From Zingiber officinale (Eukaryota; Streptophyta; Magnoliopsida; Zingiberales; Zingiberaceae), in the NCBI RefSeq assembly GCF_018446385.1, contig NC_056000.1:54840722-54904721 (forward strand): 64,000 bases of DNA, given 5' to 3'. The translations under genes were made by a program, and so were the position numbers. This document shows positions 7,057 to 64,000 of this stretch, piece by piece. Below the pieces are notes generated by a model. The model was not told the origin of the DNA. It saw nothing but the letters and a program-made list of their open reading frames with translations, and did not search any database. Within the stretch, counting starts at the first letter, position 1. Every line of letters starts with the position of its first letter.

Positions 7057-8317
7057 TGTTGGATCGAAAGGGCTAGAAGGGGGGTGAATAGCGCTCGTGG
7101 CTTTCACTTTCGTTTAGGAAGAATCAGAAATAAAACATGCAGCGGAAATAATAAAAACAAATACACGAACACCAAGATTTACTTGGTTCAGAGCCTAGGG
7201 CGACTCCTACTCCAAGGCCCACGCTCATTGAGCGTTTACTTTGGGCAATCACTATAAGCATGGAAGTTCTTTATAATTTAAGTACAATATTAGTGCAATA
7301 GTAAAATTTATACCGACAACAAAAGACAATAAGTTTGAAGCTCCTAGTTGTCCAGGTCTTGCGATAGCTTCTCTGGATCGTCTTTTAAGCAGCATGGAGA
7401 AGACAGATTGCAATTTCGTTGTTGTATTAAGATGCTGCTCGAGACTTGCTTATAAAGCTCGTGGAGGGCGCCCTCAACAGCATGGAGGGTACCCTCATAC
7501 TCACCGAAACCACAGTGTGGATGAGCTCTAACTTCTTCGCCGCTTATCCGCCCGAGGGCGCCCTCAACCTCCATGGAGGGAGCCCTCGCACCAGTGTCTA
7601 GGGCACCCTCAAGATCTATGAGGGTGCCCTCATGCCAAGCTGTGAGGTAGTCTCTGTATACGATCCGAGCCGCCTCCAAGCTCCATGGAGGGAGCCTCGG
7701 GTACTATTCATCTGATGCAAAGTTGTCTAATTTGCTTCCTGCAAGATACATTAGTTCAAAATAAAGTTAGCACAATATAAACATGTAAAATAAAGTATTT
7801 GATAGTCATCGGGCTGTCCGGTTCTGACTTTGGATTCCCAACCGGAAACCCTAGGCCGAACCGACGTCTATTGTTCCCTCACTGGGGAGCGCACCCTCAC
7901 CTACTCCACTCAGGAGAGTTTACTTGTTAACAATTAATCCTCCAGATCAACTGGACTTTTGCTCAGCACCTGAAACTCCAGGACTTTCTGTCGGACGTCT
8001 GCTCCGCGACCCACCCAGTCTTTCACTTGGTTCGTAACACCAGGACTTTCCACCTAGAGTCCTCGACTCTAGGACTTTTGCCCGAAACCCTTGACCTGCC
8101 AAGACTTCCTTCCTAAGGTTACCACCCCCTACGACCTAGGGTTACCTCACCCTAGGAGTTTCCACCTGCCTAACCACAGCTAAGACTTTTACCTAAGGTC
8201 ACTTAGGACTTTCCTGCAAGCTCATTCAAACACGTTAGATAATAAATAACCTTAACTTTTAACCCTTTGCCATTATCAAAAATTAGATTCGATCGTCGGA
8301 TGCTTCCCGCACCAACA
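7057..8317 (-). mobile_element. 5' LTR (1261 bp) of the minus-strand SIRE-type copia
   Basis: On the minus strand it starts TGTTGGTGCGGGAAGC and ends GATCCAACA next to the PBS. A likely TATA box (CTTTATAAG, plus 7449-7457) marks the U3/R boundary. A cluster of GAGGGCGCCCTC-like palindromes sits immediately 5' of it. The outer flank at 8318 is intron-like sequence of a SUMO gene remnant. Confidence 0.88.
7464..7631 (-). repeat. Palindrome cluster upstream of LTR TATA (GAGGGCGCCCTC type)
   Basis: Perfect 12-bp palindromes lie at 7464-7475, 7485-7496 (GAGGGTACCCTC) and 7554-7565, with near-palindromes at 7576-7587 and 7620-7631. In LTR orientation they lie immediately upstream of the TATA box. 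Confidence 0.85.
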
Positions 8318-8683
8318 GTCTATTCCCTTTTCTCCAGTGTTAAAGATGATTTCACTCAATGAGAATTAGCCATTAAATTTTTTTTTTATTTGATTATATT
8401 GTAATTGATGAATTGTGTTTTTATGCCAAAGACTAGTCTGATTTCTTGTTTTTAGTTTACTGAGACTAAAATAGAGTAACTTGAAATAACACTGGTCTAA
8501 TTTCTTGTGTTTTGATGTCATCATTTTTTTGTTTGGTTATATTGTAATCCAAGAATTCTGTTTTTAGTTTTTGACTCCATTATATTAATGAGGTAACATA
8601 AGAATGAGATGTAATGGGGTCAATACCGAAGAATAGAAGAAGACATAAACACACGGTAAACACATTGATATTTTCCTTTCTAG

Positions 8684-8752
8684 CTTGAGATGGAAGATTG
8701 CGACGAGATCAATGTCATGCTGCATCAAACTGGAGGTGACCTTCAACCGTAG
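8684..8752 (+). pseudogene. Last exon of a SUMO (small ubiquitin-like modifier) gene, stranded
   Basis: After a pyrimidine-rich acceptor (TTTCCTTTCTAG) an open frame of 22 codons plus TAG encodes LEMEDCDEINVMLHQTGG followed by DLQP. This is the conserved C terminus of plant SUMO, including the Gly-Gly at which SUMO protease cleaves before conjugation to lysines of target proteins. Three residues differ from the usual DGDEIDAM core (C, N and V). The upstream 8318-8683 looks like intron, with T-rich stretches and no exon. The rest of the gene is not in the window, since copia insertions occupy everything to the left. It may be the 3' end of a split but once-real gene or a captured fragment. Confidence 0.8.
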
Positions 8753-8960
8753 AAGGACCATTTTGGTTTTTGATTTTGCTAATAATTTTGACTATGTAAA
8801 CTAAAACGGTGGACCAAATGCATATATTTTCTAGCTACATGGTTTACTTGCTCAAGTCAAGTGTGATGATGGTGAAGCTTCTATTACTAGTACATGTGAC
8901 CACCGGACTCCTAATCTTGTCTATTTTGAATGCGTGTGTTTTGTTGAAAAAATATATTCA

Positions 8961-9066
8961 GCTGAATTGTAGAAAAACTCGTTTGCCAATGTTGTATTTC
9001 ATCTTCATCTCTAACAAAATTATATTTGGCTGAACTGTAGAAAAATTTGTTTGCCAACGTTGTATT
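8961..9066. repeat. 38-bp direct repeat pair
   Basis: GCTGAATTGTAGAAAAACTC and the bases after it (8961-8998) recur with about four changes at 9029-9066, a spacing of 68 bp. The stretch 8753-9290 holds no other feature I can support; it should contain the SUMO 3' flank and the unresolved end of the gypsy LTR. Confidence 0.75.
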
Positions 9067-9289
9067 GGTGAAGAAATTCAACCAATCAATAACCAAAGCT
9101 CCCTTCGGCACACAATTAAAACCAACACCTCGATCAGACATTTAAGCGAACAGGAATCACACAGGAATTGAAACCTCGACATCAGGGAAGAAACCAAAAC
9201 CTCAACTTCAAACACCGCTCGACAGACGCCAATAGAAACACAAGAAGGCCACTCCAAGGAAATCGAACACTATCAATGCAGATTTCACC

Positions 9290-10041
9290 AATCAAAAATC
9301 TGAAACATATGCAAACCAAATGACCGAATCAAAACTCAACAAAGAAGAAGCCCTAACAGGAACGAACACACAACAAACATCTTCTTCATTCCAGGTTTCC
9401 ACCCCTCTATACCTCACAGATCTTATGCTATCACCGTTAGATATACTTGCCTGCTCTTGCGCTTCCCCGTCCTCCCCGAGACCCCCGTGACTTCCACTGC
9501 GCGTCCTCGTTTTCCCCCGTCCGATCTGCTCCTCACGGTGGCGATCGGCTTCCAAATCCAGCGTCGCCCTGAGCTTCCACAGCCAAAGAAGTAGCTCCGC
9601 CAAGGGGTTGACAGCGCGTGAGGAGACGGAGGGTTGAGTCGTGGGGTGTGGGGTGATGCGAAGATTAGGACTCTTTATACCTAGGGTTATTAAGTTGGCA
9701 ATAGCTTAGGTTATTAACTTAGGTGAGGGTGGCTAATGTACCCTTATTTGTTTCCTTAATGGGTGTCAATTTAGGTAGATATAACCATTTAATCTATATT
9801 TGTTTCCCCTAGTTGATGTTAACATAGGTAAGTTGAGTTATTTAACCCCTATTTAATTCCTCTTAATCATATCATTTTGATCCTTCTAACCCTGTTGTAC
9901 CAATTCATCTTATAACCCCGTCACTATCCCCTTTTTTTTTTATGGAAATTCAGTAATTTAAACCTCCCGTTTATGCCCATGAAGCCTCATTCTGTTACTT
10001 TATTTAATAACCTCCCTAACTGGGGCTTAGGGAGCCTTACA
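9290..10041 (-). mobile_element. 3' LTR of the Tekay-like chromovirus (far end unresolved)
   Basis: On the minus strand the LTR begins TGTAAGGCTCCCTAAG directly after the PPT. A TATA-like GTATAAAGAG lies near plus 9673-9681, followed by a GC-richer leader with a 103-codon ORF (9292-9603) that resembles nothing I know. No CA terminus that matches the other end of the element could be found, so the left limit is approximate. Confidence 0.7.
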
Positions 10042-10060
10042 ATTCTCCCCTCCTTATAAG
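10042..10060 (-). other. Polypurine tract of the chromovirus
   Basis: The minus strand reads AAGGAGGGGAGAAT right after the last pol codons (the GGGGACGAAATTCTTATAAG context), the classical arrangement of Tekay/Del elements. Confidence 0.85.
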
Positions 10061-13045
10061 AATTTCGTCCCCGAAATTGACTTACCAAATAAATCCGGAT
10101 AGCGGCCGCGCATATCTTGTTCCGTTTCCCAGGTGGCCTCCTCCATCTGCTGGTTTCCCCATAAAATCTTCACCATTTTGATCTCCTTGTTCCTCAATTT
10201 TCGTACTTGACGCTCAAGAATCTGTTTCGGGCATTCCTCGTAGGTCAGATCTGATGTCCACTGCATGGTCTCATGTCCGATCACATGAGAGGGGTTAGAT
10301 ATGTATCGTCTAAGCATAGATACATGGAACACATTGTGTACCCCGGACAGATTTGGTGGTAGGGCAACCCTATAAGCTCGAGTTCCAATCCTGTCCAGAA
10401 TCTCAAATGGTCCAATATACCTTGGACTGAGCTTCCCTTTCTTTCTGAACCTTAGTACCCCTTTCATTGGTGACACTTTAAGAAATACATGATCTCCAAC
10501 TGAAAATTCCAAATCTCTTCGTCGCTGATCAACATAATTCTTTTGACGACTTTGCGCTGCTTGCATTCTATTCCGAATCTTCTCCACTAGCTCCACTGTT
10601 TGGGTCACTATGTCTGGGCCCAGAACTATCCTCTCGCCGACTTCATCCCAATATAACGGCGTTCTGCACTTCCTTCCATACAACGCCTCATATGGAGCCA
10701 TACCTATGGTTGCCTGATAACTGTTATTATAAGTGAATTCTATCAAAGGAAGCTTTGACTCCCGATTTCCCTTGAAATCCATCATACATGCTCGTAGCAG
10801 GTCCTCCAAAATCTGAATCACCCGTTCAGACTGACCATCCGTCTGGGGATGGAAGGCGGTACTAAAAGTGAGCATGGTACCCATTCCCCGATGTAGACTT
10901 TCCCAGAATCCCGAGGTAAATTTTGGATCTTTGTCTGACACAATTTGAACTGGGATCTCATGTAGCCGCACTACTTCTCTTATGTATAGCTCTGCATACT
11001 GCATCATCGTGAAGGTGGTTTTTACTGGTAGGAAATGTGCCGACTTGGTCAATCGGTCCACAATAACCCATACAGGGTTTGATCCCTTAGGAGTGGTTGG
11101 TAGACACACCACGAAATCCATGGAAACTTCTTCCCACTTCCAGACAGGGATCGGAAGTGGCTCCAGCAGTCTTGCTGGTCTCTGATGCTCAGTCTTTACT
11201 TGTTGACATGTGAGGCATTCATGCACTACCTTGACTATGTCCTTTTTCATACTTGGCCGCCAATACAATAACTTCATATCCATATACATCTTTATGCTCC
11301 CAGGATGTGTGGAATATGGGGTGTTATGCGCTTCATTCATGAGATCCTCTCGAAGTGTACCCATCTTAGGTACCCAGATGCGGTCCTTGTATCGCACGAC
11401 TCCACCCACAGTAGAGTAAATAGCCTGCCCTTTTTCTTCATCTTTCCGCTTCCACTCTGTTAATTGTTGGTCCACCATCTGTCCTTCCTGGATCTGATCT
11501 AGTAAATTTGACTTTACGATCAATGCTGACAATTTAAGCTGCTCCCTTGGTGCTACTACCTCCAAATTCAATCGTTGGAATTCCGATATCAACTGCTGTT
11601 GGCTGGTTAGTTGCGACAACATGACGGATTTGTGGCTCAAAGCATCAGCTACCACGTTAGCCTTACCCGGATGATAGTTGATGTTACAGTCATAATCCTT
11701 CACTAGCTCCAGCCACCGTCTCTGTCTCATATTTAATTCCTTCTGTGTGAAGAAATATTTCAAACTCTTGTGTTTTGTGTAGATCTCACATCGTTCCCCG
11801 TAAAGGTAGTGCCTCTAGATCTTTAGAGCAAATATAACCGCCGCTAGCTCCAAATCATGGGTGGGATAGTTTTCCTCGTGTACCTTCAACTGACGTGAGG
11901 CATACGCAATGACCTTCCCGTTCTGCATTAGCACAGCTCCCAGTCTAGTTTTGGAGGCGTCAGTGTACACCACAAACCGTCCAGAACCATCCGGTATCGT
12001 AAGCACTGGTGACGTCGTCAATCTTCCTTTCAACTCCTCAAAGCTTTTCATGCACCGATCTGTCCATTCATATCTTACCCCCTTCTTAGTCAGCGAGGTC
12101 AGCGGCAAGGCAATCCGGGAAAAATTCTGGATGAACCTTCGATAGTAACCTACCAATCCCAAGAAACTCCATATCTCAGAAGCATTCTTTGGCGTATCCC
12201 AATTCCAGATTGCCTCAACTTTGGCCGGATCCACTTCTATCCCGTTCCCTGAGACAATGTGCCCTAGAAATGGAATCTGATTTAGCCAAAAGTCACACTT
12301 GCTAAATTTGGCATACAAACGATGATCCTTCAACGTCTGTAGCACCGTGGTTAAATGCAGACGATGTTCTTGGCAATTTCGAGAGTAAATTAATATATCG
12401 TCAATGAAGACAATAACAAACTGGTCCAAGTAGGAGTGAAATACTCGATTCATCAAGTCCATAATGCTGCCGGGGCATTTGTGAGTCCGGATGGCATAAC
12501 CAGGAACTCATAATGCCCGTATCGGGTTTTGAATGCTGTTTTGTGCACATCTTCCTCCTTTACCTTCATATGATGATACCCTGATCACAAATCGATTTTG
12601 AAAACACTGTTGCTCCCTGTAACTGGTCGAACAGGTCATCGATCATGGGCAATGGGTACTTGTTCTTGATTGTCACTCGATTTAGCTCCCGGTAATCGAT
12701 GCACAGCCGCATGGTCCCATCTTTCTTGCGTACGAATAACATCGGGGCTCCCCATGGTGACACGCTTGGTCATATAAAACCCTTGTCCAGCAATTCCTGC
12801 AATTGCCCCTTCAACTCTTTCATTTCGGTAGGCGCAAACCGATATGGTGCTTTTGACACCGGCGTAGTTCCCAGTACTAGTTCTATTCCGAATTCCACCT
12901 CCCGAGTCGGGGGTAGACCTGTAACATCCTCTGGAAACACCTCTGGGAAGTCTTGGGCTATTTCCACTTCCTCCAAACTTGGTCGTTGTGTCCCCGACTT
13001 AACCGAGATGTGAACTAAAATCTCCTCACATCCCTTGCTTAGCAT
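10054..13045 (-). pseudogene. Ty3/gypsy chromovirus (Tekay-like) pol: RT, RNase H, integrase, chromodomain
   Basis: In order: the start of RT ([15 protein letters not shown]), the RT catalytic FIDD in [13 protein letters not shown], RNase H ([14 protein letters not shown]), integrase with its HHCC zinc finger and DDE core ([25 protein letters not shown]), a GPY/F-like module ([11 protein letters not shown]) and a terminal chromodomain ([19 protein letters not shown]). Chromodomains bias insertion into heterochromatin. The 569-codon 3' ORF (10054-11763) is intact, but upstream there are stops at an expected KGFI-R-P arginine, at an expected arginine in IDL-R-SGYHH, and at an expected tryptophan in ALKI-W-RHYL, plus one-base deletions near 12470 and 12600. 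Confidence 0.93.
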
Positions 13046-14708: not shown

Positions 14709-14729
14709 ACAGAAACATCCTGTAACCAA

Positions 14730-14732
<3 letters not shown>

Positions 14733-14760
<28 letters not shown>
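14733..14760. repeat. 28-bp homopolymer (T on plus, A on minus)
   Basis: An uninterrupted run of 28 T lies between GGTTGGTTACA and the U5-like sequence. It could be a simple expansion or mark a join. Confidence 0.95.
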
Positions 14761-14875
14761 GCGTCATCCACAAGCGGTGTAGAATTGCTCTAAGACATGT
14801 TTCTCCCTGACGGCTCACCTCCCCCTAGCAAAAAGGGTTAAAACCCTTATATAGACTTAGGGTTGGCCGCGGCGG

Positions 14876-15165
14876 CACGGCCGTGTAAGAGTGGCACGGC
14901 CGTGCCCTTCTTCGGTTCGGTGCGTGGCTGCACGGTCGTGCAGGGTTGCACGGTCGTGTAGCCCTTAGGCTCTGTCTCATGGGGCACGACCGTGCAGGGG
15001 TGCACGACCATGCAAGTCTCCTTCTCTGTCTGGGGTGGCACGGTCGTGCAGGGTTGCACCACCGTGTGCTGACTGGCTGCTGTTGTGGTCGCACGACCGT
15101 GTAGGGTTGCATGACCGTGTGCTCTTCCTCTCCTGTTTGGCCACACGGACGTGCAGGGTTACACA
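14876..15165 (-). repeat. CACGGCCGTG-type palindrome cluster upstream of LTR TATA
   Basis: Perfect palindromes are at 14876-14885 and 14894-14905. About ten further CACGGTCGTG or CACGACCGTG variants, often paired, follow to about 15165. The cluster begins about 20 bp upstream of the TATA box in LTR orientation. Cys/Pro/Arg-rich ORFs here are a by-product of the repeats. Confidence 0.88.
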
Positions 15166-15400
15166 ACCATGTCGTCTGGTTGGTTCTGGTGCATCAATGT
15201 CCTCCGTTCAAGCTCCGAAAATCTTTCCTGTCAACATAAAATCAAATAAAGAGCAGATATCCGAACAAAACAATAGATATGATGAATTCAAGATAAAAGA
15301 TGTGATCATGTGAAGAATATATGTGCATCAGTCACGTGAATGTGCGCTAAAACATGCGTAGAAGATCATAATATTTGCACACATCATTTGACATAATGTC

Positions 15401-17816
15401 TGTTGGTTGCTTCTCGGAAAACCTAGAGGTTCCACTGTACAAAAATTTTGTACAAAGGTCTGAACCTTTTCCTAGCTACCATGTGTTCTTTTAAATTAAA
15501 TTTTGGATCGCCTGCGGAACTTAACACGTTTGATCCAAAACTTAATCTATTTGTTCTTTTAGGTTTTGACTTGGATCTCCTGCGGAACTTAACACGTTCG
15601 ACCCAAGTCTCCTTAAGTTATTAATTCCATTAAATATTAATTTCCATAAAAGGTTCCCAGTACTGACGTGGCGAGGCACATGGCCTTCTTGGATATGGGA
15701 GCAACCACCACCGACTAGACAAAACCTTTAATAGAAAGCTAATATTTAATTTCCTAAAATAACTTTAGGTTAACCAAAGAGAACAATCAAATCACAAGGA
15801 AAAGAAAGAAAACAAAAGAACACAACTTCGAAAAACATATTCGAAATATTAGAACGTAAGCCTCTTGTATTTGGTATTATTTCCATAAATAACTAGCATG
15901 ATGCGGAAAGAAAAATTACTAGTTATACCTTGTAGAAAAACCTCTTGATCTTCTACCGTATTCCTCTTCTAACCTCGGACGTTGTGTGGGCAACGATCTT
16001 CCGAGATGAGAAACCACCAAGCACCTTCTTCTCCTCCTAGCTAGGTTCGGCCAAAACAAGAAAGCTCCACCAAGGAAGAAGAAAAACACCAACCAAGCTC
16101 TAAGAGATGCAAGCTTCCTCTCCTTCTTCTTCTTCTTCTCCAAGTAGTATCCGGCCTCCACAAGACCTCCAAGCAATAGAGAGTTTCGGCCACCATAAAG
16201 AGGAAGAAGAGAAGAGATGATGGCCGGCCACAACACCAAGGAAAAGAGGGAGAGAAAACAATAGAGGTTGTATCTCATGAAGGCACCCTCACCCCTTCTT
16301 TTATATTCCTTGGCCTAGGCAAATTAGGAAATTTAATTACAATAAAATTTCCTCAATTTCCTTGACATGATTTAATTTAGAAAAATAAAACAAATTTTCC
16401 AAATTAAAGTTCAATGGCCGGCCACATCATTGGAGAGCAAATTGGACAAGTTTTAATCAACAATTAAAACTTCCTAATTTGTTTCCGGAAATTTTAAAAA
16501 TAAAATTTCTCTTTAAAAATCTCTTCATGGTTGATAAAAGGAAATTTCTATAATTTTAATTTTATCAACATGTGGATAATTTTTAAAGAGAAAATAAAAT
16601 AACTCTCCAATCTACAAATAAGGAAAGAGATTTAATCTCTTTCTTTAATCTTTTGTAGATCTTTTACAAGAGAGATATTTTAATTTTAATTCTCTTTAAT
16701 AAATTATTTCTTCCACATAATAAAAATTAAAATTAAATTACCTTTTTAATTTAATTTGGCCGGCCCCCACTAGCTTGGGTTCAAGCTAGGGCCGGCCACC
16801 CAATTTTATACCTAGGCCGGCCCTAGCTTGTTCCCAAGCTAGCTTGGCCGGCCCCTATTGTGTGGGTATAGAAGGTGGGTATAGGTGGGTATAGAACTCT
16901 ATAAATAAGAGGCTACGATAGGGACCGAGAGGAGGAATTGGTTTTGGTCTCCCGATAAAATTAAGCATCCCGTGTTCGCCCCGAACACACAACTTAATTT
17001 TATCAATAATAATTCATTCCACTAGAGAATTATTATTGAACTACCGCACCAATCCCAAATTATATTTTTGGGCTCCTTCTTATTATGAGTGTGTTAGTCT
17101 CCCTGTGTTTAAGATATCGAATGTCCACTAATTAAGTGAGTTACTGACAACTCATTTAATTAATTTCTTAGTCCAAGAGTAGTACCACTCAACCTTATTA
17201 TCATGTCGGACTAAGTCCACCTGCAGGGTTTAACATGACAATCCTTATGAGCTCCTCTTGAGGACATTATCAACCTAGTATCACTAGGACACAGTTTCCT
17301 TCTATAATCAACAACACACACTATAAGTGATATCATTTCCCAACTTATCGGGCTTATTGATTCATCGAACTAAATCTCACCCATTGATAAATTAAAGAAA
17401 TAAATATCAAATATATGTGCTTGTTATTATATTAGGATTAAGAGCACACACTTCCATAATAACTGAGGTCTTTGTTCCTTTATAAAGTCAGTATAAAAAG
17501 AACGACCTCAAATGGTCCTACTCAATACACTCTAAGTGTACTAGTGTAATTATATAGTTAAGATAAACTAACATCTAATTACACTACGACCTTCCAACGG
17601 TTTGTTCCTTTCCATCTTAGTCGTGAGCTACTGTTTATAATTTATAAGGAACCGATAACATGATCTTCTGTGTATGACACCACACACCATGTTATCTACA
17701 ATATAAATTAATTGAGCAACTACATTTATCATAAATGTAGACATTTGACCAATGTGATTCTTATTTCTAGATAAATGTTTATACCAAAAGCTAGGCTTTT
17801 AGTATACACTCTAACA
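15401..17816 (-). mobile_element. LTR-C: reverse-oriented copia LTR (2416 bp), no target duplication
   Basis: On the minus strand it starts TGTTAGAGTGTATACTAAA and ends AGAAGCAACCAACA. It is a close relative of LTR-B throughout, including the closing ACCTCTAGGTTTTCCGAG. The outer five bases are ATGTC on the left and GTCCT on the right, so there is no 5-bp duplication. It joins an Athila-like LTR start on the left to Athila-like gag on the right, suggesting recombination between two insertions with loss of the DNA between them. ORFs inside it are not genes. Confidence 0.88.
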
Positions 17817-19564
17817 GTCCTTCAAGAATTTGGCAAACTTGGGCATTTGTAGAATTGCATCAATAAGTGACACTTCAACACATATTTCCTTATCTTTCTC
17901 CAAGAATTTGCCAAACTCTTCATCCTTCTTGAGCATTACAAGTCTTTGAGGAAAAGGAACAACCTACTTTGTTGGTTAAGTGGAAGAGTCTCTTCAACCT
18001 TAGTGGTACTCTCCTTATCATCTTGAATCTGATTTGGCGTTGGAGGAGAGAGCTCTTCTTCAGTTTGCATCCCTTTTGGAGCAGTCACTTGGGGATATCC
18101 CAAGGTTCGTCCGCTCCTAAGTTCAATTCTATTACAATGCTCCAAAGGATTAACATCAGGTTTACCAAGTAGTTGTCCTGGTGCTCTAGAAGATGAGGAA
18201 GCTAATTGGGCAATCTGGCTATCCAGAATCTTTTGATGTCTATCAGAATTATCCATTCTCTGAGGAAGCTTCAAAATGTCCTGCTTCATTTCATTTTGAT
18301 TAGAGATAATTTCTTCAAGCATCTTTTCGATTTTAGACATAGGAAAGCCTTGAGAAGATTGTTGCTGAAAATTCTGCTGCCCAGATTGAAAATTAGGTCT
18401 TGCCCCCATAGATGGTCCTTGATCTTGATTTTTCCTATAGGAAAAATTAGAATGACTTTTCCACCTAGGGTTGTATGTATTTGAGTATGGGTTGTTCTGC
18501 CTTTGATTAAGACCCATGATGGTGTCACATTGCTCTAATTGATTGATTTGTGCAGTGATAGCCCCCAATAGACATGAGTCATTAGAATGTTCTGAACTTC
18601 CACATAATTCACAAGAAGAAACAATGGCATTGACCGTACTTGGAATAGCTCCCATGTTTTTAAATCTCTTTGTAAGAGCATCCAGTTTTGCAGCCAATAA
18701 AGTAATTGCATCAACATCAAATTTCCCTGATGCTTTTGTTGTTGGGTTCACACAAGAATAGCCACCACTTCTTTCATTAGCCCATTGATGGTGATTTTGT
18801 GCTACACTTTCAATTATTTCTTCGGCTTCATCCAAGCTCTTGTTCATAAGCGCCCCTCCAGCATCTGAATCAAGGGACACCTTTGTATGATAATTGATGT
18901 CATTATAAAATGTATGTAACACTAACCACCTCTCCAAACCATGGTGTGGGTATTGTCTGAGAATACTATTATATCTATCCCAAGCTTCAAATAGAGATTT
19001 TGAGTCGGCTTGTTTGAAACTTGCAATAAGATTTCTCATATGAGCTGTTTTACTGGGAGGATAGAATTTATCAAGAAATTGCTGCTCACATTGTTCCCAT
19101 GTGGTGATGCTATTTGAAGCTAAAGAATTCAACTATTTCTTAGCTCTATCTCTCAAAGAAAACCCAAACAATAGTAAGTGGACAGCTTCATAAGGAACAC
19201 CATTCATCTTCATTGTGCTGCATATCTCATAGAAGACCTCCAAGTGTTGATTCGGGTCTTCATGCGGTCCTCCACCAAATTGATTTTGCTGCACCATAGA
19301 AATAATAGTCGGTTTGATCTCAAAATTATTTTCTTCGATTGAAGGTCTTGAAATACTAGATCGAAAACCCCTAGTGTAAGGTGCTGCATAATCCTTTAGT
19401 GGTCTATTAGCCATGATAGAATGTTCTTGTTCTTCTAAATGTCTTTGCAGAATTTTTCTTCTATGAAATGTTCTGTCTATCTCAGGGTCTAGAGGAAGAA
19501 GTTCTCCTGCAAAGTTAGATCTTCGCATACACAAGAACAAGATTACAAAATGATAGTTGTTCAA
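17817..19564 (-). pseudogene. Ty3/gypsy Athila/Tat-type gag, 3' end cut by LTR-C
   Basis: The N-terminal part carries GELLPLDPEIDRTF and MANRPLKDYAAP. The capsid core includes GGPHEDPNQHLEVFYEICST, LNSLASNSITTWEQCEQQFL and FKQADSKSLFEAWDRY, and a zinc-binding CELCGSSEHSNDSC follows. A stop at 19130-19132 interrupts RAKK-LNSL where relatives have tryptophan (TGG to TAG). Around 17940-17960 a frameshift separates the main ORF from VPFPQRL and MPKFAKFLKD, a conserved stretch before the protease. Sequence stops at LTR-C, so protease and pol are absent. Confidence 0.9.
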
Positions 19565-19828: not shown

Positions 19829-21570
19829 TGTTGACTCTCTGCAAGTGTACGGAAATGTTGTAAGTAATAATAATAGATATCGTATCCACAGGGACTAGAA
19901 TAACCACTAAAGATGTCTCAACGCAAATTAGCTAAACAACTAATCAATTGGTTTTCAAAAGCTTAGTGTAACTATGAAAGGTAAACAAAGAAATGAAATA
20001 ATAAGAAACAAGAATAAGAGCAATGATAAGGGATGTTCTAGGAGTTTTGATTTCTTTGTAAGGTTATTAAATGTAAACGATCTACCAAATCTTATTCCTT
20101 AATTGTCTATTATTTGTAGAAGGTTGTCGGTTCTCTCTTGCAATAGACAACCGACCTAGGACTAAAATCTATACCTAAATGTGATCAATTAGGTATGAAT
20201 CTATGTTGCCCTTACACAGGCTTGTTCCTGTCACGAACGTCCCTCGGATAATCAACATAGGAATTCACAATTAATCAACTGTATAAAGATACAAAGATTA
20301 ATGCATACTATCTATCCTACCCCCTTGAATAACCCTATTTCACCTTCAAGATCATCCCTTAAACGTCCTTACACGGGCATATCTGTCACGTACGTCCCTC
20401 AAAAAATCGAATGAGGAATTACCTCTACAAGATCCACAAGATATCCAAACATTCAATCAAGTATGGTAATTAAGACCTAATCACAACATTCCACACAAGA
20501 AAGAATGGATACAAACAGGGAAAAATCATAGAAATAAGAAATTGGCATATCTACAAGAGTTTTACATCAAATCATCTTTACAATTACTCCCTCCATCTTA
20601 GAACAAGAGATGTAATCCATAGAACAAGGAAAGAAATCCAAAGATAAGAAGAATACAAGCATCTTGATCCCAAATCCAAGAAAGAAAGGGAAGAAAAGCT
20701 TATCTACGATGAAGAACCGTCTTCGGATCCAATCCTCGTTCCTCGGAGCCGAAACGATGAAGATTTGCCCTTAGACCGCTGGAAATCCCTCCAAGAAGGT
20801 GGAGGAACGCCCAAATCTTGATTTCCCCTAAAGAGGGAGAAGATCCCCTTTCAATTCATGAAGGAGGCCTTATATAGAGGGGAGGTTTGCGCGCCACACG
20901 GCCCCAAGGCATGACCGTGTGAGATTCACACGGTCAAGGCCACTCCCTTCTCTACCAACCTTTCACGGCCGTTTGTGATACACGGCCGTGACATGCTTCT
21001 TCCACATATCCCTTTGCATGGTCGTGTAGATCTACATGGCTTGAACAACCTCTGCCTCTAGAAACCTTGCACGACCATGTGGTGCACACGTCCAGGGACT
21101 TCTTGGTCTTTGGAAATACTACCTGGTCGTATGGTGCACACGGCCAGGGCCTTCTTGGTCTCTGGAAATGTTGCACGGTCGTGTAGTGTGCACGGTCGAG
21201 GCTTCTTTTGGCTTTAAATCTTGGCACGACCGTGTGAAGTTCACACGGCTGAGGCAACTTCCTTTTCTGCTGCAACCACATGGCCAAGGATCTCCACATG
21301 GCCTCGGCAACCTCCCATGGCAGGGTCGTGTGAGGTTCAGGTACAACGCCTTCCTCTCTAGCTTCGCTTGTAGATTTGGCCTCGAACATGAATCCTTCAC
21401 CAAATTCGACCCCTATACACAGAAAATGCACAAAAGCAGATATCTGAACAAAAAGAGTAAATATGCTGAAAGGAAAGCTAGAAGTATGAAAATATATAGA
21501 TAAAGCATGCTCAAAGTATGTGAATGTGCGTCAAAACATGCTAAACAGTGGATATAATCTACGCACATCA
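19829..21570 (-). mobile_element. 5' LTR of the Athila-like element (1742 bp)
   Basis: On the minus strand it runs from TGATGTGCGTAGATTATATC to GAGAGTCAACA. The TATA box (CTATATAAGG) is at plus 20869-20877. The R/U5 part has the TATCGTATCCACAGGGA-type sequence near 19880, familiar from this group. It abuts a 49-bp tandem array at 21571, into which the element inserted. Confidence 0.88.
20895..21325 (-). repeat. CACGGCCGTG-type palindrome cluster upstream of the Athila LTR TATA
   Basis: A perfect CACGGCCGTG is at 20981-20990, and many CACGGTCGTG, CACACGGCC or CACGACCGTG variants are spread over about 430 bp directly 5' of the TATA in LTR orientation. Overlapping ORFs are repeat artefacts. Confidence 0.85.
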
Positions 21571-29345: not shown

Positions 29346-29347
29346 GT

Positions 29348-30307: not shown

Positions 30308-31642
30308 TGTTGGTGCAGTTTGTACTAACGGTCTAACTCAGGTTTTGATGAATGACAAGTAAGTTAAGTTAGGTGTTGGTGTGATCTAACCACTTGATTA
30401 AGTGTACAGGAGAAGTCAAGATAGGTCGACGGACTGACCGAATATCTGGCAGGAAATCCAGTTAAGTCAATGGGCCGACCAGATAGCTGGTACGAAGTCC
30501 AGATAGGTCGACAGGCTGACCGGGTATCTGGTAAGAAATTTAGCTAGGTTAACGGACTAAATAGATAACTGATACGAAGTCTAGATAGGTTGACAGCCTG
30601 ACCGGATATGTGGCAAGAAGTCCAGCTAGGTCAACAGGCCGATCGGATAGCTGACATGAAGTCCAGACAAGTCAACGGGATGACCGGATGTCTGGTACAC
30701 TGGTAAGTTAAGGTAAGTCACTAGAGGAGAGTGACCAAGTGAGAACACATCCTGGTTGAAGGAACAGTAGGCATCGATCCAATTTAGGTTCATTTGAGTT
30801 CCCTAAGCTGAGATCTCGACTAGTTTATGGTCCTGGGAGGACAAGAACTAATTACTAGTCTTTATTATTAATTATTGTTTGTCATAATACTTGTGTTGCA
30901 GGTTATTTGGACTCACGTTATTTTACAGGACAAAAAGAGAAAATTGTCTTCATATGAGCAACGTCGAAGGCGCCTTCGTACTGTTCATAGAAGGTGCCTT
31001 CCGTGGCTATAGAAAGTGCCTTTTGTAGGATAAATTTTGACCGAAGTCATGGATAAGTACCGGACTGTTTAGGATCGAATTTGCCTTATTGGAGGTGCCT
31101 TCTATGCCTTTTATAAGGTTGTCTTGAGAAGGCATTGGAACAACACTGAGATATGAGCTACCGCACATTCTTTTGAGCTTTCGACTGCCCTAGGCTTCTG
31201 CTACGACTCTGCTGTGAAGCTGCTGCGCCCAACAACTGCTCAAAGAACTTCCAATCATGGCCGGTAGACCAACGCCGATACACAAGTGCTCCTACTTCTA
31301 TTTCTAAAAGTGTCGGTAATATTTCATTTGTGTACTTGATTACTGCTTTAAAAAGGGAAGTGTAGGTTGTTACACTATCCCTATTCTTGTACTTGATTCC
31401 CTCTTTCGGAGGTACCAGAAGAGGTTTTTAATGGATTACCCATCGATAGGTCCGCGGGACCTGGATCTTGGAGTAGGAGTCGCCGAAGGTTCTAAACCAT
31501 GTAAAACTGCTTGTATTCTCTGGTGTTTGTTTGTTTTCTTATTCTTTTCCGCTGTGTACTAATAATTTTAAAATTGACAAAATGAGTTTTTGAAAACCAC
31601 GTGATTCACCCCCCCTCCTTTCACGTGCGTATTGATCCAACA
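30308..31642 (+). mobile_element. 5' LTR of SIRE-A (1335 bp)
   Basis: It starts TGTTGGTGCAGTTTGTAC and ends GATCCAACA just before the PBS. The TATA site (TTTTATAAGG) is at 31109-31118, with CGAAGGCGCCTTCG-type palindromes upstream. It is related to the SIRE-B LTRs in its first 60 bp. Confidence 0.9.
30965..31100 (+). repeat. AAGGCGCCTT-type palindrome cluster upstream of LTR TATA
   Basis: A perfect 14-bp palindrome CGAAGGCGCCTTCG lies at 30965-30978, with near-palindromes AAGGTGCCTT at 30991-31000 and AGGTGCCT at 31093-31100, ending about 10 bp before the TATA. Confidence 0.8.
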
Positions 31643-32671: not shown

Positions 32672-33740
32672 TGTAGGATCATGAATTTGATAGAGGAGGG
32701 GGGGGGGGGGTGAATATCGATTAAAATTTTAATGAAAGTACGCAGCGAAAAAATTAAAAGCAGAAAGAGTGACACAAGTAGTTTTTACTTGGTTCGGAGC
32801 ATGTGTCGACTCCTACTCCATGGCCCGCACTCATTGAGTGCTTTTATTGGACAATCACTAATAATTCAAAATATTAATTACAATAGAAGTACAGTAATTA
32901 CTAAAAAAAACAACCGACAATAAGAAAAAGAACAAACAAATTAGCACTTTGTCAGAGAGCCTTCGCAGTGTCGCAGGAGCACAGGAGAGCAGATCGTGAG
33001 TTGTTTTTCTGTGACTCCAGCCTTTACCCTCCTTATATAGGAGGTTCGGGGCGCTTGGATCCCTTCGGGCACCCTGAATATGACGTATCTAAGCCAACCA
33101 GGGATCTCTATGTGCAGAAGTGACGTTGGGGATAAAATTCACCTCCGGGCGCCCGGATCCCTTCCGGGCACTTGGACCTTTGTTTTCCAGCGGTTTCCTT
33201 CCTGTAAGAAAACGTTAATTCGAGGAAAATATATATCCTGAAAAATAGAGTGTTAGCACAATTTATCATCAAATAAAATATTAATTAGATTCCGTCTCCT
33301 CAAGACCGGAATCTAGTCACGATCTCGACTTAGATATCCCAAATGGATCTAAGTCGGATCGACGCCTAATGTTCCCTTCCCAGGAACGCATCCTCACAGT
33401 CACTCCCCTCGAGTGACTTACCTTCACTTACCTGTCAGACGTCCGATCTGCCCTTCGACCCATTTGGGTTTCGTGCCAGCTATCCGGTCAGCCCGTTAAC
33501 CTAGCTGGACTTCATGCCAAACGTCCGGTCAGCCCATCGACCCTTTTGGACTTCATGCCAGCTATCCGGTCGACCCGTCAACCTAGCTGGGTTTCGTGCC
33601 AGACATCAGGTCAGCCCGTTAACATATCTGGGCTTCTCCTACACACTCGGTCAGAGTGTTAGATAACAATGAAACTAACTTAACATATTTTATCATTCAT
33701 CAAAATTTGAGTTAGACCGTTAGTGCTAACCACACTAATA
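32672..33740 (-). mobile_element. 3' LTR of SIRE-B (1069 bp)
   Basis: Aligns along its length with the 5' LTR at 57965-60511 once the insertion there is removed (about 1062 bp). Its outer terminus has decayed from TGTTGG to TGTAGG and its inner one from CA to TA. TATA at 33032-33040; a perfect CCGGGCGCCCGG palindrome at 33145-33156. Confidence 0.92.
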
Positions 33741-33753
33741 ATCTCCCCCTTTT
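33741..33753 (-). other. Polypurine tract of SIRE-B
   Basis: The minus strand reads AAAAAGGGGGAGAT immediately before the LTR. Confidence 0.85.
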
Positions 33754-43860: not shown

Positions 43861-43869
43861 TTAACTATT

Positions 43870-44060
43870 CGCAGCATACATTAACATGCATGCCGTTAAT
43901 AATATATTATTGACGGCATGCTTTTAATGCGCGCTGTTAATATCTTTTTTTATTTCAAAGTTCATACTATTAACAGCGCACATCAACATGCACGTCGTTA
44001 ATAATACTATTAACGGCATGCTTTTAATGTACGCTGTTAATAGCGCCCTACGAAAAGTGA
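43870..44060. repeat. CACTA right subterminal repeat array
   Basis: ACATGCATGCCGTTAATAAT and its inverted partners (ATTAACGGCATGC) repeat four to five times. The core differs from the GC-rich left array (GTTAATA here versus GCGGATAATA there). Confidence 0.85.
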
Positions 44061-44077
44061 TTTTTGTTGTAGTGCAT

Positions 44078-51400: not shown

Positions 51401-51459
51401 GGTTTCCTACAATAGGTAGGAATTGAGGGTTAGTCTATGTTTTGATTCTAATTTTGTTT

Positions 51460-57962: not shown

Positions 57963-58530
57963 CTTGTTGGATCGTGAATTCGATAGAGAGAGGGGGGGGG
58001 GTGAATATCGATTAAAATTTTAACGAAAGTATACAGCGGAAAAATTGAAAGTAGAAAGAATGACACAAGTAGTTTTTACTTGGTTTGAAGCTCGTGTCGA
58101 CTCCTACTCCAAGACTCATACTCGTTGAGTGCTTTCGTTGGGAAATCACTAATAATTCGAAATATTGATTACAAAAGAAGTATAGGAATTACTAAAAAAA
58201 CAATCGACAATAAGAAAAAGAACAAACAAATTAGCACTTTGTCGGAAAGCCTTCGCAGCGTCACAGGAGCACAGTAGAGCAGATCGTGAGTTGTTGTTCT
58301 ATGACTCCATCCTTTACCTCCTTATATAGGAGGTTCAGGGTGCCTAGATCCCTTCGGGCACCCTGTGTTGGTGCAATATCCCTCAGGTCAAGGTTGACCT
58401 GGGTAACCAAGCTGAGTCTTGGTTTGGGTTTAGATGTTTGACAATAAGATATTGATTGAAGAAGAGTCAAGTAGGTCAAGGTTGACTGGATACTTGACTG
58501 GGAAGTCCTAACTGGGATGTTAGGCAAAAT

Positions 58531-58790
58531 GAAAGTCCTGGTGAGTGAAGCCAGGCAGTAGGAAAGTCCTGGTGAGTGAAGCCAGGCAGAAGGAAGTCCT
58601 AGTGAGTGAAGCTAGGCAGATGGAAATCCTGGTGAGTGAAGCCAGGTGAAAGTCCTAGTGAGTGAAGCTAGGCAGATGGAAATCCTGGTGAGTGAAGCCA
58701 GGTGAAAGTCCTAGTGAGTGAAGCTAGGCAGATGGAAAACCCTAGTGAGTGAAGCTAGGTGAAAGTCACAGTGAGTGAAGCCGGCCAGGA
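58531..58790 (+). repeat. Tandem repeat of 27-36 bp in the solo copia LTR
   Basis: GAAAGTCCTGGTGAGTGAAG followed by CCAGGCAG repeats about eight times with alternation of CCTGGTGAG and CCTAGTGAG. Confidence 0.92.
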
Positions 58791-59079
58791 AAATCCGGAT
58801 GGATCAAGGATGATCGGACATCGGGCTGGGAAGTCCAAGTAGGTCAAAGGATTGTTGGATACTTGGCATGAAAGAAAAGTCCAAGTAGGTCAAAGGATTG
58901 ACCGGATACTTGGCAGAGAAAAGTCCAAGTGGGTCAAAGGGTTGACCGGACACTTGGTAAGGGAGTCCTAGCAGTCGAGGAGTGACTAGATGCTAGGCAT
59001 GACATACCAACAGTCAAGGTTGACCGGATGTTGGTTTGGGAGGTTTGGGACTTTGTTTTGGACAAAATCAAGTCTTTGG

Positions 59080-59335
59080 ATCGATTAGTGGATCGATCCG
59101 CTCTGGATCGATCGTGGATCGATCCGGACTGTCCCAATCAGAGCCTCGGATCGATCCGTGGATCGATCAGAGGTCCCAATCGATCGATGGATCGATTGGG
59201 GGCCCTCCGCGATAAGCGCCGGATCGATCCGTGGATCGATCCAGCGCTTCAGAGCACAGGCGCTCTGGATCGATCCGTGGATCGATCCAAAGCCTCCCCG
59301 ATCGATTGGGAACATTCGAATCGATCGGGATCCGA
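59080..59335 (+). repeat. GGATCGATCC palindrome array upstream of LTR TATA
   Basis: Perfect 10-bp palindromes at 59090-59099, 59148-59157, 59221-59230, 59233-59242, 59267-59276 and 59279-59288, with further GATCGATC and CCAATCGATC variants. The array ends about 15 bp before the TATA. ORFs here are artefacts. Confidence 0.95.
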
Positions 59336-60511
59336 CCGTTGGCGTCGTTTATAGCTGCAGGCGTTCGATGGCTGCGGTAAGCACTTCACTGATTCACTCC
59401 AGAGCTCTCGCCAACTCCTCCACAGCGCTCACAAAGCTCAGATCGCCAGTTCTTGAAGGATCTTGGAAGCTCTCCAAGTCAAGAGGCGGATCAAAGCCAA
59501 GAAGAGAAGCTAGGGTTAGGGTTTTGTACTCATTGTAAGCTTGTAAGCTTGTATTTCTTGTATCCTTTCCCTCTCTTCTTGTATTGAGTCTTGTAGGGCT
59601 TCTCCGCCCTCGGTAGTTACCGAAAAGGAGTGTTTTCATAGTGGAGGGTGCGTGCGTGGTGTGGATCCTTGGATTAGTCACCTCTTGTGAGGTGGATACC
59701 AAGTAAACCAACCGTGTTAGCGTTGTGTGTTTGTTTCTGTATTTTCCGCTGCACATCTTTGAAGGAACAAGCAACGCCGAGCACCGAGCGAACGCGACGA
59801 GCTATTCACCCCCCCCCCCCCCTCTAGCTACTTTTGGTCCTAACACCCTGAATATGATGTAGCCGAGCCAACTAGGGATTTCCACGTGGCGAAGTGACGT
59901 TGGGGATAAAATTCACCTCCGGGCGCCCGGATCCCTTCCGGGCGCTCGGACCCTTGTTCAACGGTTTCCTTCCTGCAAGAAAACGTTAGTCCGAGGCAAA
60001 TATATATCCTGAAAAATAGAGTGTTAGCACAGTTTATCATCAAATAAAATATTAATTAGATTTCGTCTCCTCGGGACTGGAATCTAGTCACGATCTCGAC
60101 TTAGATATCTGAAATTGATCTAAGTCGGATCGACACCTAATGTTCTCTTCCTGGGAATGCGTCGTCACACTCACTCCCCTCGAGTGACTTACCTTCACAT
60201 ACCTGCTAGACGTCCGGTGAGTCCTTCGACCCGTCTGGGATTCGTGCTAGCTATCCGGTCAATCCGTCGATCTAGCTGGACTTCGTGGCAAACGTGTGAT
60301 CAGTCCATCGACCCGTTTGGACTTCGTGCCAGCTATCATGTCGGCTCGTCGACCTAGCTGGGCTTCGTGCTAGACATCAGGTCAGGATATCGACCTGTCT
60401 AGGATACTCCTGCATACTCGGTCAGAGTGTTAGATAACAATGAAACTAACTTAACCTATTTTGTCATTCATCAAAACTTGAGTTAGACTGTTAGTGCTAA
60501 CCGCACCAACA

Positions 60512-60873: not shown

Positions 60874-62256
60874 ATTATTGTATGCTTAAATAAGAAATTA
60901 ACTAACTCTGAAAATTTCATAAATGAACTAACAAAAGAAAATAACAAACTTAATGATCAATTAAAATCAAGTTCAACAAATGACCCAATTCAAGCTGAAA
61001 TCCCAACTCAAGTTGCAAAACTTGAGGAGGATAATCTCACACTAAAAAATGAAATAATTGAACTAAAAGAATTACTACAAAAATTCACAACTAGATCCAA
61101 GTATCTCGACATGATACTTGGGTCACAAAGAGCTATGTACAACAAGTCCGAACTCGGATACAAGTCCAGCTCAACCATCAAATCCTTTATATCATTAGTT
61201 AATCAAAATAAGATCCAAATTAAAACTTGGGGTTCCAAAAGCATGTCTAGCAACACAAGTAGGAATCAATCAATATTATGTACCTAAAAATGAGATCCAC
61301 TACATAAAATCAAATCCAACTAAAACATTAAATTCAAACCAAAATAAATCTACAAAACTAAATTCTAAAAACAAAATAATATAAAAAAAATTAATTACCA
61401 TCAAGTCCACTATAATTATAAAAGTAATTGACACAAATCCAAAACTTGAAAATCAAGTTCAATAATTCAAGGAAGGCTCCAAATTAGTTGACACCTCCAA
61501 AATAATAACTTACCTGGTAGGATAATTAGGACTAGCTAAAATAGAGACAACAGTTTAACTTGACAAAAGTACTGGTGAAGTTTTGGATGATAGGTTAGAA
61601 AAACTCTGTCTATGCATATCTAGGAAGATATGACTTCGACCTGGTGCATTTGACTTAGTGGAACTAACTGAAGCTACCCCTTACGAATCCTAACTAGTTA
61701 GACTAAGGTTTTGTACTAAGTTTAGTAGATAGGACTATTTAAAAAACTTCGAAGGTATGATTACTCTAATGATATCCAAGTGACTCACCATAGCCCAGAA
61801 GTTTATCCAAAGAATGTCTATTTGTTGAACCCAAAGTTAAATCTGAATCTAACACAAAGTTAAACCAAACCTTGAAATTAAACTTAACTCATCTCATAAA
61901 ATTATAGGATTCCCTGATTGAAAATGTAGATCGAGTGAGATGACTAAGAACTTTAAATTTAAAATTAAAATTAAACATAAAATTAAAAATTAAACTTAAA
62001 AATTAAAATTAAAATTAAAATTAAAATTAAAATTAAAATTAAAATTAAAATTAAAATTAAAACTAAAAATTAAATTTAAAATTAAAACTAAAAATTAAAT
62101 TTAAAATTAAAATTAAAACTAAGGGTTTAAAATTTAAATTTAAATTAAAATTAAAATTTAAAACTTAAATTCAAATTTTAAAACTTAAAGAATTTCAAAT
62201 CAAGTTTAATCTAAATTGGTTTTAACTCCTGCCTGTTGTAGGAAACAAAGTGGATA
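60874..62256 (+). pseudogene. SIRE-A gag tail and linker, decayed
   Basis: Frames with MYNKSELGYKSSSTIKSF near 61136-61190 and WGSKSMSSNTSRNQS near 61229-61275 recall the SIRE-B linker. The rest has stops in all frames. Confidence 0.65.
61950..62190. repeat. AAATTA hexamer tract in SIRE-A
   Basis: Consecutive AAATTA (AATTAA) units with minor variants, at the same point of the element as the A/T tract of SIRE-B. Confidence 0.92.
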
Positions 62257-63248
62257 TTGGGTAGTCGTTGTTCCAAACAGATGTCTGGGGATCACACTAT
62301 ATTCACTCAATTAACATATAAAAGCTTAGGAACAATTGCCTTTGTAAATAACGATAAACTCAAGGTAATTGGGATAGATGATATTGAACTCAAAACTGAT
62401 TTTATTATTAAGAAAGTATTACTTGTTGAAAATCTCAAATACAATCTTCTTAGCATCAGTCAATTGTGTGATTTTGGATATAAGATTAGGTTCTTATCCT
62501 CTGAATGCTTAATTAAGCACATAGATAACCTTACCATAAAACTAAAAGGGTTTAGAAAAGACAATATCTATGTAATCAACCTAACTGGTTCCTCACTAAA
62601 GTGTCAGTTGACACAGAAAGAAGAAACCTGGCTATGCACAAAACAGAACCACAATAAATAAAACTCATAATAAAATCTCATTTGAACTCTACTATAATAA
62701 ACAACCTAATATTAAATATTTTAAAGTATTTGGATGCCCAACTTACACACTAAACACAAGAGAATACTTGAGAAAATTTATCTCAAAAGTAGAAAATAGA
62801 ATCTTCGTAGGCTACTCATTAAACAGTAGAGGTTATAGAGTATATAACAAAGTCACACTAAGAATTGAAGAAACCGTAAATGTAAATTTTGAAGAGACTA
62901 ACCAAAACTTAGAACAAACCCAGATTCAAACAATTGATTTTGTTCAAGGTAACAGTAGTCAAGAAGGGGCTAGTGAAAACCTAAGTCACGAAGAAGAAGG
63001 TCAACCTCAAGTAAATGAACCTACTAGAACTGTAAGAGTTAACCCAAATCATCCAATTAACCAAATAATTGGTGACCCAAACCTAAGAGTTCTGACTAGA
63101 TCGTCCTTTAGAAATTTAAGTCAAATATCTTTGATTTAAAAAATTGAACCCAAAACGATAGAAGAATCCTTACTTCACCCAGACTAGATCATAGCCATGC
63201 AGGAAGAACTAACCCAGTCTGAAAGAAATGAAGTCTGGGACTTAGTAC
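62257..63248 (+). pseudogene. SIRE-A pol fragment: protease, pre-integrase, linker; integrase deleted
   Basis: The protease motif is GSRCSKQM in place of DSGCSKHM, so catalytic Asp and Gly are both lost. VLLVENLKYNLLSISQLC and KGFRKDNIYVIN follow, then the frame jumps from EETWL to a counterpart of the SIRE-B sequence after the integrase core (YYNKQPNIKYFKVFGCPTY, IFVGYSLNSRG, TVRVNPNHPINQIIGDP). About 580 bp covering the HHCC and DDE domains are therefore missing. The fragment ends at QSERNEVWDLVL where the next LTR begins (63249). Confidence 0.9.
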
Positions 63249-64000
63249 TGTTGGAGATCTTGTATGGTCAGCTAGAAAGGGAGTTGGATAGACGGCACCC
63301 CCAAATTGATTGCTTCCTAGGTATTCGTTAGTGTACAAGCGGAAATAAAATAATAAATACGAATACAAAAGCTAAAGACAAAGAAAGACAAAGCAAACCC
63401 ATACGCGTCGATGTAACGTGGTTCAGAGATTAGGGCTCCTGCTCCATGACTGTCCGTAAGATGGACGATCCCTATCCATCGGTGGATTAACCCCCAATAA
63501 ATTGTGGCTAGCTTATATAGCTCCTTGTGGGTGGAGAAGTCTCACCACAACTCTCACAAGAACTCTTGAGAAGCTAGGGAACTAGTAGACTACTAATAGG
63601 GGTTAACCACCTCTATTTCATTAGCCTTAATTAAGCTCCAAAGACTTAGTTATATAGGCCACGGTTTAGTAAACCCTGCCTACCAGTCGACTGCCCTTTA
63701 TGGATATTCGACTGTTACAACCCAATGACTCGATACCAGTCGACTGGTGAAAGTACTAGTCGGCTAATTCACACTGGCCGAGCGAACAAAAATATTCTGT
63801 TCACTCCCAGTTGACTACCCAGTCGAATGAACCAGTCAACTGATGAAATCACCAGTCGACTGGTACCCGAGTACAATCTCTCAGCACTCGGACCCTCACC
63901 CTTACAACTCACTTCACTCTTCTTTGTTACAGCCTTAACCTCTTGCCTTCAAGCCTACTTCCTTTAGCTCTCTTCCCTCAGATGCATCTAAGCCCGTGGC
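63249..64000 (-). mobile_element. LTR of a copia element, continuing past the window
   Basis: It begins TGTTGGAGATCTTGTATG. In layout (GCGGAAATAA near the inner end, then GTGGTTCAGAG, then CTCCTGCTCCATG) it matches the minus-strand copia LTR at 7057-8317, so the minus orientation is inferred. TATA (CTATATAAC) near 63649-63657. Confidence 0.8.
63683..63864 (-). repeat. ACCAGTCGACTGGT palindrome cluster upstream of LTR TATA
   Basis: Perfect 14-bp palindromes at 63735-63748 and 63851-63864, with several CAGTCGACTG and CAGTCAACTG variants, starting about 25 bp upstream of the TATA in LTR orientation. Confidence 0.9.

What the first reader, a model, noticed from the sequence alone, without database searches (positions are those of the whole stretch)
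7449..63864. Family-private palindrome clusters just upstream of the TATA box in seven LTRs of unrelated lineages
In LTR orientation, six families place a cluster of 10-14-bp palindromes directly 5' of the TATA box, each with its own sequence: GAGGGCGCCCTC (7464-7631), CACGGCCGTG (14876-15165 and again 20895-21325), CGAAGGCGCCTTCG (30965-31100), CCGGGCGCCCGG (33145-33156 and 59919-59930), GGATCGATCC (59080-59335) and ACCAGTCGACTGGT (63683-63864). Copia and Athila-type gypsy elements share the layout but not the sequence. The SIRE-A and SIRE-B LTRs are related elsewhere yet have different palindromes, so the motif seems to be exchanged while its position is kept. Possible roles are binding sites for dimeric host factors, hairpins in the promoter, or a diversifying target of host silencing. 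I know of no description of this as a general LTR design.
Basis: partly seen in the sequence, partly recalled or inferred. Interest (0 to 1): 0.75.

Follow-up and report, generated by a model that had tools for sequence, protein, structure and literature searches.

The report
Paired palindromes upstream of LTR promoters
In a stretch of what is most likely ginger DNA, several retrotransposon promoters carry clusters of short palindromes just before the TATA box; most of this was already described for one plant retrotransposon group (Sireviruses), but the arrangement in pairs and its presence in a second type of element may be new.

Summary
In an unbiased scan the five strongest GC-containing palindrome clusters of the 64 kb lie in LTR U3 regions just upstream of a TATA box. 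Dyads in the 350 bp upstream of TATA total 42 in seven LTRs against 6.8 in shuffles, and 4 against 4.1 downstream. Two families (30965; 33145/59919) are weak, with one perfect copy per LTR. 'Private' and 'unrelated lineages' are overstated: three copia families share a GGCGCC core, and the two CACGGCCGTG LTRs have related U3 ends. What may be new: (i) the layout in a Ty3/gypsy, probably Athila-type, LTR; (ii) copies come in pairs at family-typical distances (GGATCGATCC pairs: 46,119 places genome-wide, control 15; 32 of 60 listed at 12 bp); (iii) between families, letters change symmetrically around a kept core. Clusters are not confined to promoters. Most likely they are enhancer boxes for dimeric host factors; no functional data were available.

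The parts
7057..8317 (-). L1: 5' LTR of a Sirevirus-like copia (TGTTGG...CCAACA, junction CAACA/ATTGGTATCAGAGC; gag PF14223 at 5854-6855)
7464..7631 (-). L1 cluster: 6 copies of GAGGGCGCCCTC (0-2 mismatches), successive centre distances 21, 23, 22, 69, 21; ends 6 bp from TATA CTTTATAAGC (7448-7457)
14761..15386 (-). L2: gypsy-type (Athila-like) U3 and R, TGATGTG start, TATA CTATATAAGG near 14850; followed by A28, about 23 nt and the PBS of a chromovirus to which it does not seem to belong
14875..15154 (-). L2 cluster: 11 copies of GCACGGCCGTGC (0-3 mismatches), five pairs at 18-19 bp
19838..21570 (-). L3: LTR of a gypsy element with PBS TGGCGCCATTGCCGGGGA and gag PF03732 (17939-19132); TATA CTATATAAGG near 20874
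20909..21331 (-). L3 cluster: 9 degenerate copies of GCACGGCCGTGC (2-3 mismatches); gapped dyads 6 against 0.88 in shuffles
30308..31642 (+). L4: 5' LTR of a Sirevirus-like copia (junction CCAACA/AGTGGTATTAGAGC, polyC signal)
30965..31103 (+). L4 cluster: 4 copies of GAAGGCGCCTTC type, one perfect; TATA TTTTATAAGG at 31109; weak statistically
32676..33740 (-). L5: 3' LTR of a Sirevirus-like copia; AGGGGGAG-AT abuts its start (33741-33750)
33047..33175 (-). L5 cluster: two pairs (19 and 18 bp) of CCGGGCGCCCGG type, one perfect copy; TATA CTATATAAGG near 33036
57965..60511 (-). L6: 5' LTR related to L5 (87-88%), interrupted by solo LTR L7; perfect palindrome 59918-59931, pair at 19 bp; TATA near 58327
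58366..59845 (+). L7: solo LTR inserted in L6, target duplication CCCTG (58361-58365, 59846-59850), polyC signal
59077..59289 (+). L7 cluster: 11 copies of TGGATCGATCCA (0-3 mismatches), five pairs at 11-12 bp; TATA GTTTATAGCT at 59347
63249..64000 (-). L8: LTR cut by the window end, copia-like end ...CTCCAACA; a relative lies in L019
63682..63864 (-). L8 cluster: 6 copies of ACCAGTCGACTGGT (0-4 mismatches of 14, two perfect), two pairs at 20 bp; TATA CTATATAACT near 63655

Best explanation
These are promoter-proximal enhancer arrays of LTR retrotransposons, most likely in ginger. The copia cases are the repeated palindromic motifs known from Sireviruses; the CACGGCCGTG cases are the same design in a gypsy-type (probably Athila) LTR. 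Shown here: location upstream of TATA, repetition, dyad symmetry, pairs at recurring distances, symmetric divergence around shared cores. Inferred: each palindrome binds a dimeric host DNA-binding protein, a pair is a cooperative two-dimer unit, and several units next to TATA set when and where the element is transcribed; families differ because they follow different factors or binding variants, and array copies are gained and lost quickly.
For: The five strongest GC clusters of the window sit in U3 next to TATA. Dyads up and down of TATA 42 and 4, shuffles 6.8 and 4.1. LTRs found without reference to palindromes in 20 other 10-kb stretches: 36 against 8.0 upstream, 2 in 2401 bp downstream (7 rows, two sharing one TATA). 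47 sites with core GGYRCC from 10 clusters: mirrored flank letters complementary in 40 and 32 of 47 at the first two positions, permuted 24.2 and 19.6, P 0.0002 and 0.0004. Mispairs between the arms of 22 chosen pairs are 23 G.U and 24 A.C on the sense strand, no sign of selection for an RNA hairpin. Genome-wide 4704 against 20 and 46,119 against 15 for reversed palindromic controls. Published: such motifs upstream of TATA, symmetry typical of cis-activators (PMC2829016).
Against: No binding, expression, small-RNA or methylation data could be used. In one search positions three and four are not significant (P 0.13, 0.16), and permuting only within loci gives P 0.17 in total (position two 0.035), so descent within families explains part of it. 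Spacing beats random placement at P<0.05 in 8 of 14 clusters, not in L3, L7 and L8; L4-L6 were not tested and the 9 sample clusters were chosen by me. Clusters of repeated palindromes also occur outside LTR promoters, L1 has dyads in its distal U3 too, and no one motif joins all families. The wobble test is weak because neutral decay also gives equal numbers.
Confidence: 0.6

Rival explanations
1. RNA-level hairpins: the U3 array is transcribed at the 3' end of the element RNA (or by read-through), pairs fold into stem-loops, and these feed small-RNA production and silencing, or act in polyadenylation.
For: The best windows of five clusters (L1, L2, L3, L7, L8) have fold z-scores of -4.3 to -6.8 among 852 windows. 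In maize, Sirevirus palindromes are small-RNA hotspots (cited in PMC5311732 and PMC10760457).
Against: Windows in the CACTA element and in Angela-like LTRs fold more strongly, and L4 and the L5 cluster are not among the 45 windows listed. G.U and A.C mispairs are equal, 23 and 24. Location upstream of the start site fits a DNA signal better (inference).
Confidence: 0.2
2. By-product of array growth: short palindromes are prone to slippage, template switching and gene conversion, so clusters are mutational relics fixed with the family and have no function.
For: L8 and its relative in L019 differ by indels in the array while flanks align. L2 and part of L3 are scored as tandem arrays of period 52-54. 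Similar clusters exist outside promoters.
Against: The position next to TATA recurs in several families while the part downstream shows no excess. Symmetric difference of flanks around a kept core.
Confidence: 0.15
3. Methylation-gated switch: a CpG in each dyad core makes factor binding depend on CG methylation.
For: Five of six motif classes have CG at the exact centre; CACGGCCGTG has two CG beside it (read from the motifs). Published arrays form CpG islands (PMC2829016).
Against: CpG positions do not vary more than others, 22 of 170 cells against 75 of 486. CpG observed/expected upstream of TATA is well above the rest of the LTR in L7 (1.45), slightly in L4, L5 and L8, not in L1-L3.
Confidence: 0.15

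Closest known systems
Sirevirus LTR repeated motifs (RM boxes), Bousios et al. 2010, PMC2829016 (sections 9, 11, 12 and passages read)
   Same: Multicopy, family-specific palindromes in the upper part of the LTR, ending shortly upstream of a TATA box; LTR copy numbers here (4-11) fall within the published 3-14; CpG in the core
   Different: Core here is often GGCGCC, GATCGATC or GTCGAC and not CGG-CCG; pairs at recurring distances (not mentioned in the parts read); also found in a gypsy-type LTR
Palindromes in maize Sirevirus LTRs, Bousios et al. 2016 (paper not held; seen only as cited in PMC5311732 and PMC10760457)
   Same: Palindrome-rich regulatory region of high variability with strong predicted structure
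   Different: Maize motif and small-RNA data; in maize Ty3/RLG elements generally lack an obvious structure peak (PMC10760457, passage), whereas a gypsy-type LTR carries the design here
Tnt1/Retrolyc1 U3 repeats (recalled; Retrolyc1 seen as a reference title in PMC10760457)
   Same: Different U3 regulatory regions define subfamilies
   Different: Other copia lineage; sequences not compared

Membership tests
Sirevirus (Ty1/copia) | 5' LTR/internal junction CA/ATTGG (or AGTGG) TATCAGAGC | tested here: met
   L1 exact; L4 and L6 CCAACA/AGTGGTATTAGAGC, one change in the nonamer (definition). L5, L7, L8 have no such junction in view. Genome-wide CCAACANNTGGTATYAGAGC 43,813 places, control 0
Sirevirus (Ty1/copia) | Polypurine tract AGGGGGAG starting 10 bp before the 3' LTR | tested here: met
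   L5 only: AGGGGGAG-AT directly before the LTR start; the other LTRs show no 3' LTR junction in the window
Sirevirus (Ty1/copia) | polyC integrase signal near the LTR 3' end | tested here: met
   L1, L4, L5, L6, L7 carry a C run shortly before the LTR end; L8 has no clear run
Sirevirus (Ty1/copia) | Repeated palindromes upstream of TATA, at least 8 copies per element (LTR plus linker), CGG-CCG core | tested here: inconclusive
   Position and repetition met; LTR copies L1 6, L4 4, L5 4, L7 11, L8 6, linkers not examined; CGG..CCG in L5/L6 and in the 12-bp form in L7, not in L1, L4, L8
Sirevirus (Ty1/copia) | RT/RNase H phylogeny | not tested
   No reference set of named Sirevirus proteins at hand; only gag, integrase and SH3-like pieces matched Pfam
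Athila-type Ty3/gypsy (L3, L2) | Non-chromovirus PBS, not tRNA-Met | tested here: met
   L3 PBS TGGCGCCATTGCCGGGGA; its match to tRNA-Asp is recalled; non-chromoviruses do not use tRNA-Met (PMC6317226, passage). L2 has no PBS of its own
Athila-type Ty3/gypsy (L3, L2) | Athila RT/INT sequence | not tested
   Only gag (PF03732) was found for L3 in the window; the lineage name rests on recall of PBS and LTR ends
Chromovirus (as owner of L2) | 5' LTR equals 3' LTR | tested here: not met
   Inferred 3' LTR starts TGTAAGGCTCC near 10043 (start placed by recall of related elements); local score of L2 against 8300-10300 is 26-27, shuffles up to 29

The most novel reading that the evidence does not exclude
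LTR promoters of both plant superfamilies converge on one architecture: arrays of double-palindrome units (two copies of one dyad at a family-typical distance of 11-24 bp) set against the TATA box, whose letters may change provided they change symmetrically. That would be a general, sequence-free grammar for recruiting dimer pairs, diversifying under pressure from host silencing.
Probability: 0.25. Interest if true: 0.7.

Novelty: new variant of a known kind. Interest (0 to 1): 0.42.

Why it matters
It places an apparently new observation under a known but little-tested trait and extends it: a gypsy-type LTR with the same layout, and a pair arrangement that can be tested by DAP-seq and reporters. 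One pair motif alone has 46,119 places in this genome, so if these are binding sites they could redistribute factor binding or small-RNA targeting.

Tried and rejected
L2 as proof that a chromovirus has the design: rejected, because the inferred 3' LTR of that element is unrelated and a relative of L2 (in L016) shows neither the A tract nor the Met PBS in the roughly 500 bp seen after its cluster. Sense-RNA wobble bias: none. CpG-decay excess: none. Angela-like LTRs: palindromes GGCCGGCC and CCAAGCTAGCTTGG lie several hundred bp from the TATA-like TATAAAAG and were not counted as the same layout; in the 200-kb sample two Angela-like LTRs have the AT-rich GGAAATTTCC near TATAAAAG. Viral contigs: 5 pattern hits, not examined further, and no gag relative. 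Motif strings in papers: 85 papers hold at least one, 40 listed, none of these 40 titles concerns LTRs. Looser TATA reading by eye gave about 10 TATA-adjacent clusters of 33 printed; post hoc, not used as a test.
Full report
What the window is. It is contig C15:54840722-54904721 (+) of a 3.09-Gb genome in 211 contigs. Contig C3 of that genome has the length 178304392, which is also the longest contig shown for a Zingiber officinale protein, so the host is most likely ginger. The window is a nest of retrotransposons plus a CACTA transposon.

Check of the observation. Every named palindrome is present. A scan blind to position (all 1024 10-bp palindromes, at most two mismatches, 425 windows of 300 bp, 60 dinucleotide shuffles) ranks L7, L2, L8, L1 and L3 highest once AT-simple repeats are set aside. 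L4 is weak and the L5/L6 sites are not among the 60 windows listed. Clusters end 5-57 bp before a TATA box in LTR orientation. Counting dyads (8-bp arms, at most one mismatch, gap 0-12) in seven LTRs (L6 left out as interrupted), the 350 bp upstream of TATA hold 42 (shuffles 6.8), the distal U3 12 (4.2, five of them in L1), the part downstream of TATA 4 (4.1); 151 background windows average 0.64. L4 alone is not significant (P 0.065). With the stricter count of single near-palindromes only four of seven LTRs are enriched.

Replication elsewhere. In 20 stretches of 10 kb from C1-C4 (200 kb) LTR ends were sought by a polyC signal and C[CT]AACA without regard to palindromes. Of 8 ends, 7 had a TATA candidate and 1 had none; upstream dyads 36 against 8.0, downstream 2 in 2401 bp. 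Two of the 7 rows share one TATA; counting it once gives 24 against about 6.1. Three rows (two independent) exceed every shuffle; one row has no upstream dyad at all. The reverse test is not significant: of 34 palindrome clusters in the same 200 kb, 8 have a strict TATA within 110 bp on either side, chance expectation 5.7. So LTR promoters tend to have the clusters, but the clusters are not confined to them.

What the LTRs are. L1 has the exact Sirevirus junction, L4 and L6 have it with one change, L5 has the AGGGGGAG-AT tract, and L1 and L4-L7 have the polyC signal. Copia gag PF14223 lies beside L1 and L6. L7 is a solo LTR with duplication CCCTG inside L6, and the relative L5 lacks it. L8 has copia-like ends, but its lineage is not settled. 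L3 belongs to a gypsy element with a non-Met PBS. L2 shares its U3 start with L3 (score 57, 300 shuffles up to 29) and aligns with an LTR in L016. It is followed by 28 A, about 23 nt and the PBS of a chromovirus whose inferred 3' LTR is unrelated, so it is probably not that element's LTR.

Pairs. Neighbouring copies recur at distances typical of the family: L1 21, 22, 21 (with 23 and 69 between pairs); L2 18 four times and 19; L3 17 twice; L4 24, 22; L5 19, 18; L6 19; L7 11-12 five times; L8 20 twice. Against random placement 8 of 14 clusters reach P<0.05 (5 from the window, of which only L1 and L2; 9 chosen from the sample, of which 6); L4-L6 were not tested. Genome-wide, perfect GGATCGATCC pairs within 30 bp occur at 46,119 places against 15 for the reversed palindrome. 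Of the 60 plus-strand places listed (all in the first 2.5 Mb of C1, many in the same arrays) 32 have the 2-bp spacer, that is 12 bp between centres, and 11 the 30-bp spacer. Because these copies descend from each other, this shows the unit, not selection on it. The same search for GAGGGCGCCCTC and CACGGCCGTG did not complete.

Symmetry. From ten clusters (six of them outside the window; L5/L6 and probably the two in L025 are related) 47 sites with core GGYRCC were taken. The first and second mirrored flank letters are complementary in 40 and 32 of 47 against 24.2 and 19.6 after permutation (P 0.0002, 0.0004); positions three and four are not significant, nor is the total when permuting only within loci (P 0.17; position two alone 0.035). 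So clusters differ by A..T against G..C on both sides together. L8 and its relative in L019 show the array gaining or losing copies while the flanks stay alignable.

Known background. Bousios 2010 (PMC2829016; [quoted passage not shown] PMC10760457 (passages) reports that maize Ty3 elements generally lack a structure peak. Searches that could have shown a gypsy counterpart gave none that I could recognise from titles and starts of abstracts; one search listed 20 of 33, and only openly licensed papers are held.

Mechanism. DNA-level sites for dimeric factors fit the place, the symmetry and the equal G.U and A.C mispairs best. Hairpin RNA and silencing remain possible and may coexist. No functional data were available.

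Noticed in passing
14712-14760: Gypsy-type U3-R followed by 28 A, about 23 nt and a chromovirus PBS; the inferred 3' LTR of that chromovirus (start near 10043) is unrelated. Looks like an RNA-derived chimera.
   Followed up: partly
33871-44074: CACTA element (CACTACAACAAAAATCAC ends, apparent TSD CAT, tnp2 at 40024-41394) inserted just outside L5; its subterminal 35-bp palindromic array at 33974-34286 gives the densest dyad window of the background.
   Followed up: partly
58361-59850: Solo LTR L7 with 5-bp duplication inside L6; L5 is an uninterrupted relative.
   Followed up: yes
792-5942 and 15402-17820: Angela-like LTR copies (about 72-93% alike; lineage name recalled) with GGCCGGCC and AAGCTAGCTT dyads several hundred bp upstream of a TATAAAAG.
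   Followed up: partly
L006:1440-1700: An LTR whose BLAST matches to L1 lie only in the GAGGGCGCCCTC array: candidate for array exchange between families.
   Followed up: partly
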